Source of the DNA: a virus | Virus record (IMG/VR): IMGVR_UViG_3300027730_001702 | Coordinates: 1 to 64,000 of that record | Reading direction: 5' to 3' (one strand) | DNA: 64,000 nucleotides | In this document: one piece after another, positions 9,174-50,980 of the stretch | Layout: every line of letters starts with the position of its first letter | How positions within the stretch are numbered: position 1 is the stretch's first letter | The notes under the pieces: model-generated | Told to the model about the DNA's origin: nothing | Databases searched by the model: none | What the model saw: the letters and a program-made list of their open reading frames with translations, nothing else | Made by a program: the position numbers and the translations under genes

Positions 9174-10334
9174 ATGTTTTATTTAAATGCAACCAAAAAA
9201 TTTTTATCTTTCACTGTGACAAACGCTGGTGGATTTAGTTCTTATGGATCTAGCGCAAAATCTGGTCATATATACTATAGTAATAATATATCTGACCCTT
9301 GGGGTAATAATGGAGTTCATATTGGCTCATTTGATCTTAAAACTGCTGGCTCTACTACATTCGTAATTGGTGAATCTAACGATGCCGCTGGAACAATCTT
9401 GGCTAATAAACAAAAATATACAAGTATGTGCAATTTATTTTCTGCTGGAACATTAGATTATCATTTTTTAACATTTGTAATAAATAGGTCTAAACCTGCT
9501 GATTTTGTGCCTACTAGCTGTCCATGTACACAATTTCCTGGGCAGGGAATTGTAAATAATCGTACAGTTTGTGACGCAGCAAATTTTACATTTTTAGATG
9601 GATATAATCATGCAGGCGCAAATATAACTATAACTCCATATTATATAAATTCTTCTAATACTTTAATTGCGGGGGGCAGTTTATCAACATCATTCTGGGA
9701 TCTCATAGAATTTGCTGCCAATCCTAATTGTTATAATCTTAAATCAAATAGTCCAACATCTGGTAGGTTTCCAGATGATGCTAATAATTACGACGAGGTT
9801 GGTTGGACAAATGGTTCAGTTCTTATGCCTATACATGGTTGTGAGGCTAATGGTCCATCTAGCACTTTAAGAAGAGGCGCGTTTCGTGATTATTTTCCTT
9901 CAGGTGGAGTCACGTTTCCAGCTAAATGCACATCAGCACTTCCAAATTATACAAATAAAAACGGTAATCATTATTGGGGCCGTGGATATGCTGATCCGCT
10001 GGGAAAAAATAAAACAAAAATAACTCAAAGTAATGGTCCGTATGGATCACCATTATCTGAAAATTATTATAATGATAATATTGTTTATGATTCATTATTC
10101 GGTAGTTCAAACGGAGTGAGCGGAACTGGGTTAGTCCAATGTCCAATATCTACAGGAGTAGTGTCTAATAACATGCGTCCAAGATATTTCTTAGATATTA
10201 CCTCAAGATGTAATGCAGGTGCAAGAACTAGCACTTTCCAACCATATTATAATGGCTCGACATATCCAACTTATGGTGGGTATGGATTTTACATGAAATT
10301 TAATTGGGACGCTTTATGCTATCCTTGCGTTTAA
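9174..10334 (+). CDS. Large Gly/Ser/Asn-rich, Cys-containing protein, probably virion or exported
   Basis: The 386-residue protein is rich in Gly, Ser, Asn and aromatics with scattered cysteines (SCPCTQF, CNLF, LCYPCV at the end), beta-rich in character, and lacks a signal peptide or known domain. This composition is typical of phage fibre, decoration or tip proteins. It is the only plus-strand gene among minus-strand virion-like genes. TAGTGTAATT (9151-9160) upstream matches the motif found before other virion-like genes. The functional label is inference. Confidence 0.55.
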   Translation: MFYLNATKKFLSFTVTNAGGFSSYGSSAKSGHIYYSNNISDPWGNNGVHIGSFDLKTAGSTTFVIGESNDAAGTILANKQKYTSMCNLFSAGTLDYHFLTFVINRSKPADFVPTSCPCTQFPGQGIVNNRTVCDAANFTFLDGYNHAGANITITPYYINSSNTLIAGGSLSTSFWDLIEFAANPNCYNLKSNSPTSGRFPDDANNYDEVGWTNGSVLMPIHGCEANGPSSTLRRGAFRDYFPSGGVTFPAKCTSALPNYTNKNGNHYWGRGYADPLGKNKTKITQSNGPYGSPLSENYYNDNIVYDSLFGSSNGVSGTGLVQCPISTGVVSNNMRPRYFLDITSRCNAGARTSTFQPYYNGSTYPTYGGYGFYMKFNWDALCYPCV

Positions 10335-14576: not shown

Positions 14577-15572
14577 TTATATATTAGCTGTATCGCCAGA
14601 AAATATTATTTCACAATATTTTTTTAATTTTTTTGAAATAAACTCTTTCATGTCTTTGAAGTCGTCAAATTTTATAAAATTTGTGTTTTCTTTCTTATTA
14701 TCAAACTTAATTTTAAATATTTTTAATTTCTCTAGAATATCACATTTATTAATAATTAGCCTTGTCACTCCAGATTTTTTAATTGCGTATTCTAATTTAG
14801 TTAAATCTAACCAGTTGGCTATCCTTTTTCTTCCTGTGGTTGTGCCATATTCTTTCCCCACTTCTATAACTTGATTAAGTTCATTATCTAGTAGTAATGA
14901 TTCTGGAAATAATGGATCTACTCCGCTTTTAGTATCATATATTTTAGCAACACCAATAATGTCTCTTATCTTTTTAGGACTAAAGCCCAATGAGCAAGCA
15001 GAGTAAGGTAATGTTTCGCTGCTTGTTACATATGGATAATTTCCATAATTTAAATCTAACCAAAAACTTTGAGCGCCTTCACAAAGTATGTTTCCATTAA
15101 GCTCGCCATCCCAAATATATTTTTTATCTAAATAATATTTAGCCAGTTTTCCTGTTCTTAATGCTTTATCTGCATAACATGGTGCAATTCCTTGTCCAGT
15201 TGTCCCTAGTTTAGGTTTTAAAAATTTAAGATCATATTCAATGTGTCTTTGAGTAATGATATGAGCTTTTGGGCTAACTTTAATTAAAGAAGTATCAAAA
15301 CCTTCGTTATCTAAGTACTCTATTTCGTCAAAAAATTTATCAATATTAATGACACAATTTGGACCTATTATGCTAGTTTTATTTTGGAAAACTCCGCAAG
15401 GAATAATATGAGTTTTATATTTTTTATCATTAATATAAACTGTATGCCCTGCGTTTGGCCCACCATTCCAACGACAAACGATATCATAATTTTTAGATAT
15501 TGCATTACTTATCTTGCCTTTTCCTTCATCTCCCCAACATAAACCAAAAATAACATCAACTGCTTTTATCAT
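14577..15572 (-). CDS. purA: Adenylosuccinate synthetase family protein, copy 1
   Basis: The 331-residue protein has the PurA signatures: GLCWGDEGKGK (catalytic Asp15), WNGGPNAGHTVY (catalytic His43), LGTTGQGIAPCYADKALR and the aspartate loop TTTGRKRIANWLD near residue 243. PurA joins aspartate to IMP with GTP to give adenylosuccinate. Bacterial PurA is about 430 residues, so this is the short form seen in phages and archaea. The catalytic Asp is retained, unlike the PurZ enzymes of 2-aminoadenine phages. It overlaps the SEC-C-like gene and lies downstream of guaB/guaC. A paralogue lies at 25828. Confidence 0.9.
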   Translation of the reverse strand: MIKAVDVIFGLCWGDEGKGKISNAISKNYDIVCRWNGGPNAGHTVYINDKKYKTHIIPCGVFQNKTSIIGPNCVINIDKFFDEIEYLDNEGFDTSLIKVSPKAHIITQRHIEYDLKFLKPKLGTTGQGIAPCYADKALRTGKLAKYYLDKKYIWDGELNGNILCEGAQSFWLDLNYGNYPYVTSSETLPYSACSLGFSPKKIRDIIGVAKIYDTKSGVDPLFPESLLLDNELNQVIEVGKEYGTTTGRKRIANWLDLTKLEYAIKKSGVTRLIINKCDILEKLKIFKIKFDNKKENTNFIKFDDFKDMKEFISKKLKKYCEIIFSGDTANI

Positions 15573-25820: not shown

Positions 25821-25827
25821 TTGATTG

Positions 25828-26823
25828 ATGGTAAATCATGTAGATATTATATTTGGATTAGCTTGGGGCGATGAGGGCAAAGGCAAAATTAGCAATGCAA
25901 TTAGCAAAAATTATGATATAGTTTGCCGTTGGAATGGTGGTCCAAATGCTGGACATACAGTATACTTAGGAGACAAAAAATATAAAACACATCTTATTCC
26001 TTGTGGAATTTTTCAAAACAAACTTAGCGTTATTGGCCCAAATTGCGTTATTAATATTGATAAATTTTACGATGAAATAGATTATCTTAAAAAAGAAGGA
26101 TTTGACACATCGTTAATTAAAGTAGGTCCAAAAGCTCATGTTATAACAGAAAAACATATTCAATATGATCTTAAATTTTTAAAACCCAAACTTGGCACAA
26201 CTGGTCAAGGTATTGCTCCATGCTATGCAGACAAAGCTTTAAGAGTTGGTAAACTTGCGAAGGATTATCTAGATAAAGAATACCTTTGGGACGGAGAACT
26301 ATATGGCAATATTCTTTGTGAAGGTGCACAGAGCTTTTGGTTGGATTTAAATTATGGAGATTATCCGTATGTTACGAGTAGCGAAACGCTTCCATATTCT
26401 GCTTGTTCTTTGGGATTTAGTCCAAAGCTTATCAGAGATATTATTGGAGTAGCAAAAATTTACGATACCAAAAGTGGAGTAGATCCATTATTTCCAGAAA
26501 CTCTTTGGGAAGATAATGAATTAAATAGTTTGATAGAGCTAGGAAAAGAGTATGGCACGACCACTAACAGAAAAAGATTAGCTAATTGGTTAAATTTTTA
26601 TAAATTGCAAAAAGCAATTAAAATATCTGGCACAACCAAGCTTATTATAAATAAATGTGATATTTTAGATCAACTCAATATTTTTAAATTAAGATTTGAC
26701 AACTTAAGGGACGGACCTAATTTCATTAAATTCAATAATTTTGATAATATGAAAGAGTATATAAAAAACCAACTTAAAGATTATTGTGATGTAATTTTTT
26801 CTGGTAATAAAGAGTATATATAA
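25828..26823 (+). CDS. purA: Adenylosuccinate synthetase family protein, copy 2
   Basis: The 331-residue protein is closely similar along its whole length to the PurA at 14577, keeping GDEGKGK, NGGPNAGHTVY and GTTGQGIAPCYADKALR. It differs in the aspartate-binding loop, TTTNRKRLANWLN in place of TTTGRKRIANWLD, so substrate or kinetic properties may have diverged. The two copies lie on opposite strands about 10 kb apart, each near a SEC-C-like gene. Whether copy 2 makes adenylosuccinate from IMP or uses another purine is open. Confidence 0.88.
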   Translation: MVNHVDIIFGLAWGDEGKGKISNAISKNYDIVCRWNGGPNAGHTVYLGDKKYKTHLIPCGIFQNKLSVIGPNCVINIDKFYDEIDYLKKEGFDTSLIKVGPKAHVITEKHIQYDLKFLKPKLGTTGQGIAPCYADKALRVGKLAKDYLDKEYLWDGELYGNILCEGAQSFWLDLNYGDYPYVTSSETLPYSACSLGFSPKLIRDIIGVAKIYDTKSGVDPLFPETLWEDNELNSLIELGKEYGTTTNRKRLANWLNFYKLQKAIKISGTTKLIINKCDILDQLNIFKLRFDNLRDGPNFIKFNNFDNMKEYIKNQLKDYCDVIFSGNKEYI

Positions 26824-26828
26824 AATAA

Positions 26829-27098
26829 ATGAATTTTTTAAATTTTAAAAATTTAATTTTTTGGGGAGGTTTTGTAAGAGATTATCTAATTCGTGGAGAA
26901 TCATTTAATGATATAGACATAGACCCATCTCAGTGCGAAGTTAATCTAATAGATTATCTAGATAATAATTATTCTGAATTTAAAACTACTTGTAATTTTT
27001 TTCCTACATATATAATTAATAATTATAAGATTCAAATAGTGCATCTGAATGGGAAAGAAGGATTCAAGCCAATACATTCTCATAATTTGTTTCATTGA
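26829..27098 (+). pseudogene. Truncated nucleotidyltransferase-like gene
   Basis: The 89-residue ORF carries GGFVRDYLIRGESFNDIDIDPS, the GG-VRD...D-D motif of nucleotidyltransferases of the poly(A) polymerase/tRNA-NT fold; the intact relative at 48954-49409 has GSYVREWIGNGEPMDRGWNDVDV. Here the protein stops after LNGKEGFKPIHSHNLFH, where it runs into the antisense of a virion-like gene fragment. It looks like a gene cut short by a deletion and is probably inactive. Confidence 0.55.
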
Positions 27099-27332
27099 AA
27101 ATCCTAGAGGCCTTGGTGTTGTTGGTCCGACATTGTTTCCTTCAGCTATGCAAAATGGAAAACCTCCAATTTTATTATTTTCATCAACTATCAAACACCC
27201 CTCGTCATCGACTAGGCTTTTAAGATCGCAAGCGCAATCTTTTAATTCATCGTCGCTTCCAACATCTATCTCTTTAAGAATTTTCTTAAGATAGTCTGGA
27301 TAATTATCAGGTTCTGTTAGTGCACATGGCAT
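26958..27332 (-). pseudogene. Truncated copy of the MPCALTEP virion-like module
   Basis: The first ~85 residues (MPCALTEPDNYPDYLKKILKEIDVGSDDELKDCACDL..., to MKQIMRMYWLESFF) align with the N-terminal module of the genes at 49420 and 50272. After that the reading frame is simply the antisense of the neighbouring nucleotidyltransferase fragment (LNLIIINYICRKK...), so the native C-terminal domain is lost. AAGTGTAAATC upstream matches the promoter motif of the other copies. Confidence 0.65.
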
Positions 27333-27374
27333 ATATTAGAGATTTACACTTAATATAATATAATATAATATAAT

Positions 27375-29931: not shown

Positions 29932-30317
29932 GGGCCCGTACTGGTTTCGATTTTAGAGATACGAATTAAAATGCAAGTGGAGGTTGAATCGTGGACTCCT
30001 TAAAAAGTTTCACTTATATTAACTGCCAAAAAAGCAAAATATAAAGGTCACATTTCAGCAAGAGTTTCTCTTGTTGAGCTGACCGCTTCTGTAGCTTAAG
30101 TTACAGCGTGATACCCTTGAAGCATCTATTGGGATATTGCGTAATTAGATGTTTGATTATAAAGAGTTTTTTTATTCTTTTTATACTCAATATTAAAAAT
30201 AAAATCGCTAAGTATGTTTGTTGTTTATCTATATAAAGCTAAAAACAAAAACGACTAAACTTGTAGTATTTTAATTTAAATTTTTAAAAGACAGAGGTTC
30301 AATTCCTCTCGGGTCCA
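29932..30317 (+). ncRNA. ssrA: Transfer-messenger RNA (tmRNA)
   Basis: The ends form the tRNA-like half: GGGCCCG (29932-29938) pairs with CGGGTCC (30310-30316), the T arm AGAGG-TTCAATT-CCTCT precedes it, and TGGTTTCGA near the 5' end is the conserved tmRNA segment. A resume codon GCC follows TTAACT, giving a 24-residue tag that starts AKKAKYKG and ends ELTASVA, with its TAA in the loop of CTGTA/TACAG just as the E. coli tag stop sits in a hairpin loop. tmRNA rescues stalled ribosomes and tags nascent chains for proteolysis. The final SVA replaces the usual LAA. CCA is not encoded. Confidence 0.93.
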
Positions 30318-44615: not shown

Positions 44616-46799
44616 ATGAGTTTGAATTTTCAAGAAACCTATTATGGTAAAAAGATAGACACTTCTAATATCCTCAATATTGAAGATGCTAGTAGAATAA
44701 TTAATGGAAGAAAAACAGTAGTAATAACTGGCGTAACTGGTCAGGATGGAAGTCATATGGTTGATTTTTTACTTAAAAATACAGATTATCTTATTTTTGG
44801 TGGAGTAAGAAGATTAAGCGTATATAATCATGAAAATATTAAGCATATCAAGTCTGATAGATTTCATCTTATTAATTTTGATTTAACCGATTCTCATGCT
44901 ATATCAAGAACTGTAGAAAAATTGCAACCAGATTATTTTATTAACTTTGCTGCTCAAAGTTTTGTTGCGAGCAGCTGGGATTTTGCTCGTCAAACTTGGC
45001 AAACTAATTCTACCGCTGTGCTTGATATTTTAGAAGCAATAAGGCTTTACAAGCCATCTTGTAGACTTTATCAAGCTGGTTCAAGCGAAGAATTTGGAAA
45101 TGTACAATATACTCCTCAAGACGAGAATCATCCATTAAAGCCAAGGAGTCCATATGGAGCGAGCAAAGCTGCTTCTAGACAATTAGTTAAGGTATACAGA
45201 GAGTCTTATGGATTATATGCCGTACAAGGGTATCTTTTTAATCACGAGTGTTTGACTGAAAAAACCCCAATTATTATAAAATATAAAGATTCTGGATTGA
45301 TAAATATTCTACCAATTAGCGAGATTGTTCCTCATAGAAGAAACCATTTAAAAGGTAAAAAATATATCTCCACGGATAATTGTAATTATTTAATATGGGA
45401 TGGCGGAACGTGGAGCGAAATTTTAACAAGAACGGCCACATGGAATGATGAAAATAATGATAAAGATATACATAGAATAATGTGTCGCGCTGGATTTTAC
45501 GAAGCAACGGCAGATCATATATCTTTTATAAAAGGCGGAATGCAAATTAAAACCAAAGATTTATCTGTCAATAATGAACTAGAACTTAAACCACTACCAG
45601 AAAAAAATAACATATCTATTGTTTTAGATGAAGAGGCTGAACTTTTAGGATTAATGACTGCGGAGGGATACATTAGCGAAGATGGTCGTGGCAAATTTAC
45701 TAATAAAGATAATGATTTATGCGAAAGAGTAAAGTTTTTGTGGAGCAAACTATCCTCTGGATATACATCTGAATATTACAGCCAAAGCGGATTCACGAAT
45801 AGAAAAGATATAAAAAATATAAATTTATGCGGAGATTCAAATTATTTAAAACTATTAAGAAAAAATCTTTATACTGAAACGGGCGATAAAAGAATTCCAA
45901 TTAAAATTTTAAATTCAAACCTAAAAACAATTCAAATTTATTTAAAAGCATATAACGATGGAGATGGATTAAAAGCTAGTAATCAAAAAACTGAATTCCA
46001 AGGTTTTACGACCTCATCCTATACGCTTGCTTCTGGCTTATGCTATTTATTGAGTTTACTAAAATTTAGATTTACATTATGTCCAGAAGAAAGAGGAGAT
46101 AGGCTTTATTTTAAAATTAATATAAATTCAAATAATAAAAATATATCTAATAAAGGAAAACATTTAATAAAAAGTCAAAATGAAGTAACTAAAATATCAA
46201 AATTACAATATTCTGGATGGTTATTTGATCTTGAAACAAAGTCGGGAACATTTTCTGCTGGAATTGGATTTTCTTGGGTCCACAATAGTCCAAGAAGAGG
46301 CGAGGAATTCGTAACTCGCAAAATCACTAAAAATGTAGCAAGAATTTACCATGCAATTAAAAATAATGAACCCTTTAGTCCATTAGAATTAGGCAATATT
46401 GAAGCGAAAAGAGATTGGAGTTATGCTGAGGATTTTATAGAAGGTGTTTGGATGATGTTAAATCAAGATAAATATAATAGTAATTACGATGGAAATGCGA
46501 AAGAATATGTTTTTTCATCGAATGAGACGCATACAATTAAAGAGTTTGCAGAAAAAGCTTTTGCTTATGCTGGAATTAATGGCGAATGGATTGGAGAAAA
46601 AGAACATGAAGTATATGTCTCTGAGGATAAAAAGGTATTAATTCAAATTAATCCTAAATTTTATAGACCAGCAGAAGTGGAGCTTCTTCTTGGTAATTCG
46701 GATAAAGCTAGAAAAGAGCTAAACTGGCAACCAAAAATTTCATTTGACAAATTAATAGAAAAGATGGTAAACTGGGATATTGAAAATCTCAAATCATAA
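44616..46799 (+). CDS. gmd: GDP-mannose 4,6-dehydratase interrupted by an intein
   Basis: The 727-residue precursor consists of a Gmd (GVTGQDG near residue 39, FAAQSFVASSW, AGSSEEFG, YGASKAASR with Y-x-x-x-K) split after LFNHE by a 346-residue intein (residues 212-557) and resuming with SPRRGEEFVTRKI. Removing the intein leaves about 381 residues, close to the usual 345-375. Gmd makes GDP-4-keto-6-deoxymannose, precursor of GDP-fucose, rhamnose and perosamine sugars; two fucosyltransferase-like genes upstream fit that. The end overlaps the next ORF. Confidence 0.92.
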   Translation: MSLNFQETYYGKKIDTSNILNIEDASRIINGRKTVVITGVTGQDGSHMVDFLLKNTDYLIFGGVRRLSVYNHENIKHIKSDRFHLINFDLTDSHAISRTVEKLQPDYFINFAAQSFVASSWDFARQTWQTNSTAVLDILEAIRLYKPSCRLYQAGSSEEFGNVQYTPQDENHPLKPRSPYGASKAASRQLVKVYRESYGLYAVQGYLFNHECLTEKTPIIIKYKDSGLINILPISEIVPHRRNHLKGKKYISTDNCNYLIWDGGTWSEILTRTATWNDENNDKDIHRIMCRAGFYEATADHISFIKGGMQIKTKDLSVNNELELKPLPEKNNISIVLDEEAELLGLMTAEGYISEDGRGKFTNKDNDLCERVKFLWSKLSSGYTSEYYSQSGFTNRKDIKNINLCGDSNYLKLLRKNLYTETGDKRIPIKILNSNLKTIQIYLKAYNDGDGLKASNQKTEFQGFTTSSYTLASGLCYLLSLLKFRFTLCPEERGDRLYFKININSNNKNISNKGKHLIKSQNEVTKISKLQYSGWLFDLETKSGTFSAGIGFSWVHNSPRRGEEFVTRKITKNVARIYHAIKNNEPFSPLELGNIEAKRDWSYAEDFIEGVWMMLNQDKYNSNYDGNAKEYVFSSNETHTIKEFAEKAFAYAGINGEWIGEKEHEVYVSEDKKVLIQINPKFYRPAEVELLLGNSDKARKELNWQPKISFDKLIEKMVNWDIENLKS
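45249..46286 (+). mobile_element. Intein with LAGLIDADG homing endonuclease in gmd
   Basis: The insert begins with Cys (CLTEKTPIIIKYKDSG) and ends FSWVHN, followed by Ser as the first C-extein residue, the standard splice chemistry (Cys1, penultimate His, terminal Asn, +1 Ser). Block B is visible as FYEATADHISF. Two dodecapeptide-like motifs, LLGLMTAEGYISED and LKAYNDGDG, mark a LAGLIDADG homing endonuclease. The insertion divides the highly conserved NHE-SPRRGE motif of Gmd. Confidence 0.92.
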
Positions 46800-48681: not shown

Positions 48682-48957
48682 GTGGCAAGTAAAAATAAAA
48701 CTTTTAAAATACCAGACTCTTTGCTCAAGCAAATTGATGAATGTAGCTTCGGCGGATATATTCTTTTTAATTTCTCAAGTAAAGGCGAACCCCAAGTATA
48801 TACAAAATTCGATAATCAAATAAACGCTATGGCTCTTTTGTATTATGTAAATACTTGGAGTCAAAGCGTAGATCAACTAAATTTAGAAGCCACAACAGAT
48901 CAAATAGCAAGAACCAATCAAGATGATAAAGATTTTGGTGAAGAAGATAAAGATTAA
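48682..48957 (+). CDS. Hypothetical protein, about 91 aa
   Basis: The frame is open from a TTG at 48676; the GTG at 48682 is preferred because AAGTGTAAAAC lies 6-7 bases upstream. The protein (ASKNKTFKIPDSLLKQIDEC..., acidic tail ending FGEEDKD) has no known motif. Convergent overlap of 4 bases with the next gene. Confidence 0.6.
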   Translation: MASKNKTFKIPDSLLKQIDECSFGGYILFNFSSKGEPQVYTKFDNQINAMALLYYVNTWSQSVDQLNLEATTDQIARTNQDDKDFGEEDKD

Positions 48958-49409
48958 ATAAATTTATAATTATCTAAATCGTAAGTTTTATTTAAGATGA
49001 TTAGTTTCCAACCTTTATTTATTAAACTTTTCTCAACGCTTAAATTCCTACCAATATCATTTGTATTTAAAAATTTACATATTTTATTTTTAGTTAAACT
49101 TAAAAATTCTTCTTGATATTTTTCATATGGTGGCATAATTTTAAACTCTCCATCATAACGAAAAAGATTAGCTGAATATTTAGAGCTATAAAATGGTGTT
49201 GACCCAGCTCTAAAATCTAATTTTATATTTGGAAATTTATTTAAAACTTCTCTTGTTATGGTGGCCTCTTTATCTTTTGCGCATATGACATCAACATCAT
49301 TCCATCCACGGTCCATTGGTTCTCCATTTCCAATCCATTCTCTCACATAACTACCAGTTAATTTTCCTTCATTTTGAAGAATATATTCAATAAACAAAGA
49401 ATGATTCAT
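48954..49409 (-). CDS. Nucleotidyltransferase-fold protein
   Basis: The 151-residue protein has GSYVREWIGNGEPMDRGWND followed by VDV, the GS-x(n)-D-x-D motif of the nucleotidyltransferase superfamily, with a probable third acidic residue in KLDFRAG. The truncated ORF at 26829 is a relative. It sits 10 bases after the virion-like protein gene. Target unknown. Confidence 0.65.
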   Translation of the reverse strand: MNHSLFIEYILQNEGKLTGSYVREWIGNGEPMDRGWNDVDVICAKDKEATITREVLNKFPNIKLDFRAGSTPFYSSKYSANLFRYDGEFKIMPPYEKYQEEFLSLTKNKICKFLNTNDIGRNLSVEKSLINKGWKLIILNKTYDLDNYKFI

Positions 49410-49419
49410 GTTATATTTT

Positions 49420-50250
49420 TTAAGTTATGACTAAAGCGCTTCTAGTTCCAGGAACATCAGTAACACAGCCGCCAGTTGAATCAAATCTTTTATACATAGG
49501 TATAGAAACTGTAGTTTTATCTATTTTTATTGACATATTATCTTGACCAACTAATTCAGTATTAACACAAGTTTGTTCATAAGACGAAAAAGTAGTATTA
49601 TAAGTTCCATAAAGCATTAAAAATGATGGATAAAAATAGTAATCATTTCCTTCTTTTATATAATATTGATAAACTGGAACTTCAGGAGGATTAACACCGC
49701 AAATATCTTGATACATATTAAAGAAAAAACCAGCTAAAAAAAGATCGTAGAAACTTACGTCCGTAAGGCAAACTGACGGACTACTGCCTGACGCATATTT
49801 ATACGTGAGTTTAAGATTATAAATTAATGATCTTTGCTTTTTACAAACAAGCTCTTTGTCTTGCTTGACATACCTTTCATATTTATTCTTTTTATAATCA
49901 TGAATTGCTAATGGAGAGCAGCTACCGCAGCTTCCAACTTCTATGTGGTTCAATGTCTGGGTAAAATCTTTACTTTGCCAATATAGCCACATAGCATCTT
50001 TTAATGATAATTTTATAGGATTAAGAGTTCCACCTCCCACTAAAGAAGTATCTTCTGTAAATTCCCAACAAAATGGAAATGCTCCAACTTTACCATCTGA
50101 ATCTGTAATAGGGCATCCTTCATCTGTAGTTGGAGTTTTTAAAGAGCAAGCGCAATCTTTTAATTCATCGTCGCTTCCAGCATCTATCTCTTTAAGAATA
50201 CTCTTAAGGTAATCTGGATAATTATTTGGCTCTGTTAGGGCGCATGGCAT
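49420..50250 (-). CDS. MPCALTEP-module protein A, virion-like
   Basis: The 276-residue protein has an N-terminal module of about 95 residues (MPCALTEPNNYPDYLKSILK, DDELKDCACSL, TDEGCPITDSDGKVGAFPFC, LKDAMWLYWQSKDF) shared with the gene just upstream and with a fragment at 26958. The rest is a separate beta-rich domain with Cys. A constant N-terminus with changing C-termini is how phage tail proteins hold exchangeable receptor-binding tips; that role is inference. AAGTGTAATTT lies 5 bases before the ATG. Confidence 0.65.
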   Translation of the reverse strand: MPCALTEPNNYPDYLKSILKEIDAGSDDELKDCACSLKTPTTDEGCPITDSDGKVGAFPFCWEFTEDTSLVGGGTLNPIKLSLKDAMWLYWQSKDFTQTLNHIEVGSCGSCSPLAIHDYKKNKYERYVKQDKELVCKKQRSLIYNLKLTYKYASGSSPSVCLTDVSFYDLFLAGFFFNMYQDICGVNPPEVPVYQYYIKEGNDYYFYPSFLMLYGTYNTTFSSYEQTCVNTELVGQDNMSIKIDKTTVSIPMYKRFDSTGGCVTDVPGTRSALVIT

Positions 50251-50268
50251 ACTTTAAATTACACTTGA
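50083..50268 (-). repeat. 186-bp direct repeat, copy A
   Basis: Identical to 50770-50955 except for one base, which is the third position of the start codon (ATG here, ATA there). It covers the first ~60 codons of the module plus the promoter motif. Confidence 0.95.
50256..50266 (-). promoter_or_regulatory. Candidate late-type promoter motif AAGTGTAATTT
   Basis: Minus strand motif with the -10-like TAATTT ending 5 bases before the ATG at 50250. The same bases recur at 50943-50953 before module protein B. No -35 consensus is visible. Confidence 0.4.
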
Positions 50269-50271
50269 TTT

Positions 50272-50937
50272 TTAAAAATTAGCAGTTAATTTGAATGTTG
50301 AGCTTCCCATCGTATGTCTTTGTTCATCAAAACCACCATCATAATTTATATTTTTTCCGTTAAAAGTTCCTTGGTTAGGACCACCAGTAAACCATCGACT
50401 TATCGCATAAAGAGGGTCTGGAGTTGGAGTGTCTACTTCCCATGAAAATTGAACAAATACTGCAATGTCCAAAGAATAAAGGTTTTCCTCTTCATTTTTC
50501 TTTCTTGGATTTGGATATACCTCTACATAACCACCAAGCCCAGGAACTCCTCCAATCTTCTGGTAAACAGCATTAGGACAAACTTTTTCCTTTCCACTGG
50601 TAGATCCAACATAAGGCATTTTAATAGTAAATGATTTAGACTCACCATCATCGTAATTAAAATCAACGTTTAATGTAAAACTCTTCGTTTTCCAATAGAT
50701 TTCCATGATTTCTTTTAATGTAAATAATTGGAGGCCATTATCTTCTATAACAAGACATCCTGGAAAAAGTCCAACTTTACCATCTGAATCTGTAATAGGG
50801 CATCCTTCATCTGTAGTTGGAGTTTTTAAAGAGCAAGCGCAATCTTTTAATTCATCGTCGCTTCCAGCATCTATCTCTTTAAGAATACTCTTAAGGTAAT
50901 CTGGATAATTATTTGGCTCTGTTAGGGCGCATGGTAT
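50272..50937 (-). CDS. MPCALTEP-module protein B with an ATA start codon
   Basis: The frame reads ATA-CCA-TGC... (IPCALTEPNNYPDYLKSILK) from 50937 and continues for 221 codons through the shared module (LKEIMEIYWKTKSF) into a different C-terminal domain (FTIKMPYVGSTSGKEKV, GGFDEQRHTMGSSTFKLTANF). The first internal ATG is at 50706, after the whole module. Thus either ATA initiates, or translation gives only the C-terminal 144 residues, or the gene is silenced. The rest of the frame is intact, so decay, if any, is recent. Confidence 0.6.
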   Translation of the reverse strand: MPCALTEPNNYPDYLKSILKEIDAGSDDELKDCACSLKTPTTDEGCPITDSDGKVGLFPGCLVIEDNGLQLFTLKEIMEIYWKTKSFTLNVDFNYDDGESKSFTIKMPYVGSTSGKEKVCPNAVYQKIGGVPGLGGYVEVYPNPRKKNEEENLYSLDIAVFVQFSWEVDTPTPDPLYAISRWFTGGPNQGTFNGKNINYDGGFDEQRHTMGSSTFKLTANF

Positions 50938-50955
50938 ACTTTAAATTACACTTGA
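50770..50955 (-). repeat. 186-bp direct repeat, copy B
   Basis: Second copy of the repeat at 50083-50268; the only difference is the start-codon base. Direct orientation, 687 bp apart start to start. Confidence 0.95.
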
Positions 50956-50980
50956 CTTTTAATTTTTAGCTTGGTATCAT
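50952..50980 (+). promoter_or_regulatory. Promoter of the dnaB-like operon
   Basis: TTGACT (50952-50957), 17 bases, TATCAT (50975-50980), 9 bases to the ATG at 50990. It overlaps the leftward motif of module protein B. Confidence 0.75.

What the first reader, a model, noticed from the sequence alone, without database searches (positions are those of the whole stretch)
50083..50955. 186-bp repeat in which the only difference is the start codon
Two adjacent virion-like genes share 186 identical bases covering promoter motif and N-terminal module, apart from one base that turns ATG into ATA in the upstream gene. The C-terminal domains differ. Recombination between the direct repeats would delete one C-terminus; gene conversion could switch the ATG between copies. 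This looks like an on/off or exchange cassette for a receptor-binding tip.
Basis: partly seen in the sequence, partly recalled or inferred. Interest (0 to 1): 0.72.

Follow-up and report, generated by a model that had tools for sequence, protein, structure and literature searches.

The report
Duplicated phage gene with lost start
An uncultivated phage carries two neighbouring copies of a modular gene whose shared front ends are kept identical by recombination, and the first copy has lost its normal start codon and is probably switched off; a similar loss in a related phage suggests ordinary turnover of gene copies rather than a dedicated switch.

Summary
Window 50770-50955 and 50083-50268 are 186-bp direct repeats that differ at one base, turning ATG (lower gene, 276 aa) into ATA (upper gene, intact 221-codon frame). 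The repeat covers a late-promoter-like GTGTAA motif, the start codon and an N-terminal Cys-rich module. The genes belong to a family not found in Pfam, PHROGs or the PDB, with 22 open members in 8 related uncultivated viruses, all with the same N-module and promoter and varied C-termini. All start with ATG except the window's upper copy. A frameshifted remnant in another virus also has ATA, where a close relative has an intact ATG gene. Neighbouring copies in a third virus share their own near-identical 5' tracts, as expected from gene conversion. The genes sit as removable cassettes: the same intergenic site is empty in four relatives, holds one cassette in two, and two in the window. Most likely the ATA copy was recently silenced during birth-and-death turnover. 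A reversible switch is possible but nothing found shows it. Repeat-mediated deletion would usually join ATA to the lower C-terminus and so silence it. Virion location and receptor binding are unproven.

The parts
50272..50937 (-). Upper gene, ATA at the start position, intact 221-codon frame, distinct C-terminal domain
   Evidence: keeps the 11 residues invariant in the family
49420..50250 (-). Lower gene, ATG start, 276 aa, same N-module, C-terminus of the KEG..YYFYP subfamily
50770..50955 (-). Upper copy of the 186-bp repeat (promoter motif, start codon, N-module)
50083..50268 (-). Lower copy of the 186-bp repeat
50945..50952 (-). Late-promoter-like AGTGTAAT of the upper gene
   Evidence: function inferred
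50258..50265 (-). Late-promoter-like AGTGTAAT of the lower gene
   Evidence: function inferred
48954..49409 (-). Companion gene, 151 aa, nucleotidyltransferase-like by motif only; relatives follow family genes in other viruses
   Evidence: no Pfam support
48958..50949 (.). Cassette insert between the stop of the 93-aa gene and the -35 box of the helicase gene promoter; the site is empty in four relatives
50952..50980 (+). Promoter of the DnaB-like helicase gene (TTGACT, 17 bp, TATCAT), right border of the insert
   Evidence: sequence inspection
26958..27332 (-). Third copy of the N-module, ATG start, C-terminus cut short (124 aa)
26829..27098 (+). Truncated companion-type gene facing the third copy
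   Evidence: sequence inspection

Best explanation
The two genes are tandem cassettes of a modular phage gene family: promoter, start codon and Cys-rich N-terminal module are common, and the C-terminal domain differs. Shown by sequence: the cassettes are present or absent at the same intergenic site in related viruses, neighbouring copies share near-identical 5' tracts, and cassettes decay to remnants. Inferred: recent gene conversion or unequal exchange made the 186 bp identical, after which the upper copy took a G-to-A change in its start codon. With no visible Shine-Dalgarno sequence and a very short predicted leader, AUA should start translation poorly, so the upper copy is probably silent or nearly so, a recent casualty of copy turnover. 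It may still act as a recombination donor.
For: 22 open members in 8 viruses all start with ATG except the upper copy. The only other ATA is L006:5971, which also has a 1-nt frameshift and has lost its C-terminus, whereas L007, 97% identical there, has ATG and an intact gene. Further remnants: window 27 kb and L007:9006. Neighbours in G003 share an 83-bp identical promoter-start tract in one pair, and in another pair a 5' tract of about 120 bp nearly identical, with 87% N-module but 35% C-terminal identity. The same site is empty in G002, G003, G004, G008 and holds a single cassette in G005 and G007. Seven of eight AGTGTAAW sites lie just upstream of a gene start. Ribosome binding to leaderless mRNA depends on an AUG codon in E. 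coli (PMC4965119).
Against: The upper frame is fully open and keeps the 11 residues invariant in the family, two of them outside the repeat, so it was used until very recently or still is. Transcription and translation starts are inferred from sequence only. The start-codon change is the sole difference in 186 bp, about 1.6% by chance for one random mutation (3/186), which leaves room for selection to silence it. No reads could be examined.
Confidence: 0.62

Rival explanations
1. AUA works as a weak start, so the upper protein is made at a low level; the change tunes dosage rather than kills the gene.
For: Open 221-codon frame with the family's invariant residues kept and codon-position G+C like neighbouring genes; AlphaFold gives it a confident N-module and a beta-rich C-terminal part like the lower gene.
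Against: All other open members use ATG; no Shine-Dalgarno seen and no other NTG before codon 78. A very recent loss would leave the same open frame.
Confidence: 0.2
2. A reversible switch: gene conversion between the repeats moves ATG and ATA between copies, turning the upper C-terminus on and off in the phage population.
For: 186-bp homology and signs of conversion between neighbours elsewhere make it possible.
Against: Both near-identical contigs have ATA above and ATG below; the second ATA case is a decayed remnant; no recombinase or long inverted repeat is tied to the locus. Deletion by crossing over in the repeat would mostly put ATA in front of the lower C-terminus.
Confidence: 0.1
3. 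The ATA is a sequencing or assembly error, or the assembly has forced two variants into one.
For: Near-identical repeats are prone to misassembly.
Against: A second contig of different length and ends agrees over 34.5 kb at 100%, though it may share reads or a sample; unique C-termini flank both copies.
Confidence: 0.05

Closest known systems
Phage tail-fibre or receptor-binding protein sets with a common N-terminal anchor and exchangeable C-terminal tips (e.g. Mu and P1 fibre genes; from own knowledge)
   Same: Constant front part, differing C-terminal part, recombination in the shared part
   Different: No invertase or inverted repeats seen, each copy has its own promoter, no homology to any known fibre, virion location not shown
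Silent-copy systems such as neisserial pilE/pilS (from own knowledge)
   Same: A probably unexpressed copy next to an expressed one with shared homology
   Different: The silent copy here keeps promoter and whole frame and lacks only the start codon; the C-termini are not alike enough to exchange pieces; no variation seen
Orphan modules of polymorphic-toxin-type loci (CdiA/Rhs; from own knowledge)
   Same: Conserved front, variable C-terminus, a small companion gene downstream of some copies, displaced remnants left beside a working copy
   Different: No toxin or immunity homology found; the companion belongs to one conserved family; stranded copies keep their own promoter
Birth-and-death multigene families with gene conversion (from own knowledge)
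   Same: Tandem copies, patchy 5' identity, empty sites, remnants
   Different: A sequence family not named in the libraries searched, in an uncultivated phage group

Membership tests
Phage receptor-binding or tail-fibre proteins | Sequence or fold similarity to known fibre, spike or tip proteins | tested here: inconclusive
   No PHROGs, Pfam or PDB sequence match of note; Foldseek had no hit at E<=0.001 and the weak rows were mixed; model pLDDT 71
Phage receptor-binding or tail-fibre proteins | Present in the virion and binds the host | not testable with these tools
   needs proteomics and binding assays
Phage receptor-binding or tail-fibre proteins | Conserved N-module with variable C-terminus among paralogues | tested here: met
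Reversible phase-variation cassette | More than one arrangement or start-codon state within a population or between close strains | tested here: inconclusive
   two near-identical contigs agree; no reads available
Invertible fibre switching (Mu/P1 type) | Long inverted repeats flanking the variable part, with a linked invertase | tested here: not met
   the long repeats are direct; inverted pairs near the locus are short and imperfect; no recombinase recognised by inspection of the window's ORFs
Tandem family shaped by gene conversion | Neighbouring copies more alike in one tract than in the rest, and there more alike than to their best C-terminal relatives | tested here: met
   window pair; L005 pair N 87% against C 35%, with better C matches in other viruses at N 53-71%; L008 pair with an 83-bp identical tract
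Leaderless late genes | Mapped transcript 5' end at or next to the start codon | not testable with these tools
   motif spacing only

The most novel reading that the evidence does not exclude
Losing the start codon of the upper copy is selected: it silences one of two tip genes, and because deletion between the direct repeats would then join ATA to the lower C-terminus, it also protects the tandem array from collapse, while gene conversion keeps the option of re-arming the stored copy.
Probability: 0.08. Interest if true: 0.7.

Novelty: new member of a known kind. Interest (0 to 1): 0.33.

Why it matters
It documents an unnamed modular gene family in an uncultivated phage group and shows how its members come and go, homogenise and decay. 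If the silencing proves to be selected or reversible, it would be a simple way for a phage to store a spare C-terminal domain. As it stands it is mainly a clear example of cassette turnover and a caution about reading switches into near-identical repeats.

Tried and rejected
PHROGs, Pfam and PDB sequence searches gave no match for the family. Foldseek against PDB and BFVD and the VIA second look gave nothing above noise. The upper C-terminus had no close relative other than the twin contig. No relative in genome contigs. A cultured relative could not be named: helicase matches in phage records are about 25% identical. Literature searches for a matching phage system found none, and the paper measuring all 64 start codons in E. 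coli is not held. Strict leaderlessness was considered, but spacing from motif to start varies from 14 to 21 nt, so only a very short leader is claimed. Rejected: an alternative in-frame NTG start before codon 78 (none). No phage tRNA for AUA was found (only tRNA-Ser and tRNA-Asn).

Full report
Observation. One search gives the exact repeat: 50770-50955 and 50083-50268 on the minus strand, 186 nt, one mismatch, at the third base of the start codon. The upper gene has ATA followed by 220 further open codons; the first NTG in frame is ATG at codon 78. The lower gene has ATG and 276 codons. The wider match is 210 nt at 96%. A third, diverged copy lies at 27156-27365. The finding is therefore accurate to the base.

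Is it an assembly artefact? Contig IMGVR_UViG_3300028114_001316 is 100% identical over 34.5 kb and carries the same ATA. Towards the end of the window's record the two begin to differ (97% over the last 424 bp), so they are different assemblies. They may share a sample, so this is support, not independent proof.

The family. Searches with the proteins found relatives only in viral contigs, none in prokaryote genomes. Profile searches of the nine records give 22 distinct open members in eight viruses, not counting the twin contig, and remnants. The first 62 residues or so are shared: M-P/A-C, YPDYLK, CAC, FPFC. After a helix with the pattern AM.LYW..K the C-terminal parts diverge. Eleven residues were invariant in 19 members, and the ATA copy keeps all of them, including M78 and C120 outside the repeat. 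The start Met is not among the eleven, because the ATA copy is in the alignment. No library names the family, and fold searches with a model of mean pLDDT 71 found nothing.

Promoter and start. All members have GTGTAA or GTGTAT 14-17 nt before the start codon, by inspection. In the window, seven of eight AGTGTAAW sites lie just upstream of a gene start in the right orientation, including the large ORFs at 9174 and 11288. The total count of the motif is not above chance; only its placement is telling. No Shine-Dalgarno sequence is visible. If GTGTAAT acts as a -10 element the leader of these two genes is zero to a few bases (inference). Ribosome binding to leaderless mRNA depends on an AUG codon in E. 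coli (PMC4965119). The host here is unknown.

Start codons across the family. Every other open member starts with ATG. The one further ATA is at L006:5971. That stretch is 97% identical to L007:5831-6321, where the gene is intact with ATG. In L006 a base is missing in a run of G, the C-terminus is gone, and the sequence joins to what matches the end of a companion gene in L007, followed at once by an intact ATG copy. So an ATG-to-ATA change occurred at least twice, both times in the upper of two tandem copies, and in L006 it goes with decay.

Cassette behaviour. At the site between the 93-aa gene and the helicase gene, G002, G003, G004 and G008 have only about 40 bp; G005 and G007 hold one family gene with ATG; the window holds two plus a companion gene. 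The insert begins right after the stop codon of the 93-aa gene and ends at the -35 box of the helicase promoter. Companion genes with a GG/GS..R...D.D pattern follow family genes in several other places, and one follows a remnant. The nucleotidyltransferase label rests on that pattern alone, since Pfam gives nothing.

Homogenisation. In L008 two neighbours share an 83-bp identical tract over promoter and start and then differ. In L005 two neighbours share about 120 bp nearly identical at the 5' end, with N-modules 87% and C-termini 35% identical, while better C-terminal matches in other viruses have N-modules only 53-71% identical. The window pair is the third such case. Gene conversion or unequal exchange explains these; which of the two acted is not shown.

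What recombination would do. A crossover between the direct repeats deletes the upper C-terminus. Because the start codon lies near the promoter end, 18 nt from the edge, nearly all such crossovers leave ATA joined to the lower C-terminus. The reverse, unequal duplication, would give the upper C-terminus an ATG. This is deduction from the map, not observed.

Verdict. Recent loss of the start codon in one of two tandem cassettes, in a family with constant turnover, is the best account (0.62). Weak use of AUA (0.2), a reversible switch (0.1) and an error (0.05) remain.

Noticed in passing
44616-46799 +: GDP-mannose 4,6-dehydratase gene interrupted by an intein-like insert of about 300 residues (roughly residues 212-514); six relatives have the uninterrupted gene.
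   Followed up: partly
14577-15572 - and 25825-26823 +: Two adenylosuccinate synthetase-like genes of 331-332 aa (PurA models score far above the PurZ model, all below curated cut-offs), inverted relative to each other with 74-80% DNA identity.
   Followed up: partly
29932-30317 +: A tmRNA gene (Rfam 108 bits) in the phage, with an unusual predicted tag ending SVA.
   Followed up: no
2503-2678 -: tRNA-Ser with predicted anticodon ACT next to tRNA-Asn.
   Followed up: no
L007:9006-9102 +: Twelve-residue remnant of the family (MPCALTSNTDYP) with ATG intact, directly before an intact companion gene; identical to the start of the family gene elsewhere in the same virus.
   Followed up: partly
32.7-46.8 kb and 56.6-59.2 kb: The phage encodes a DnaE-type polymerase and a long run of sugar-nucleotide and glycosyltransferase-like genes (by inspection).
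   Followed up: no
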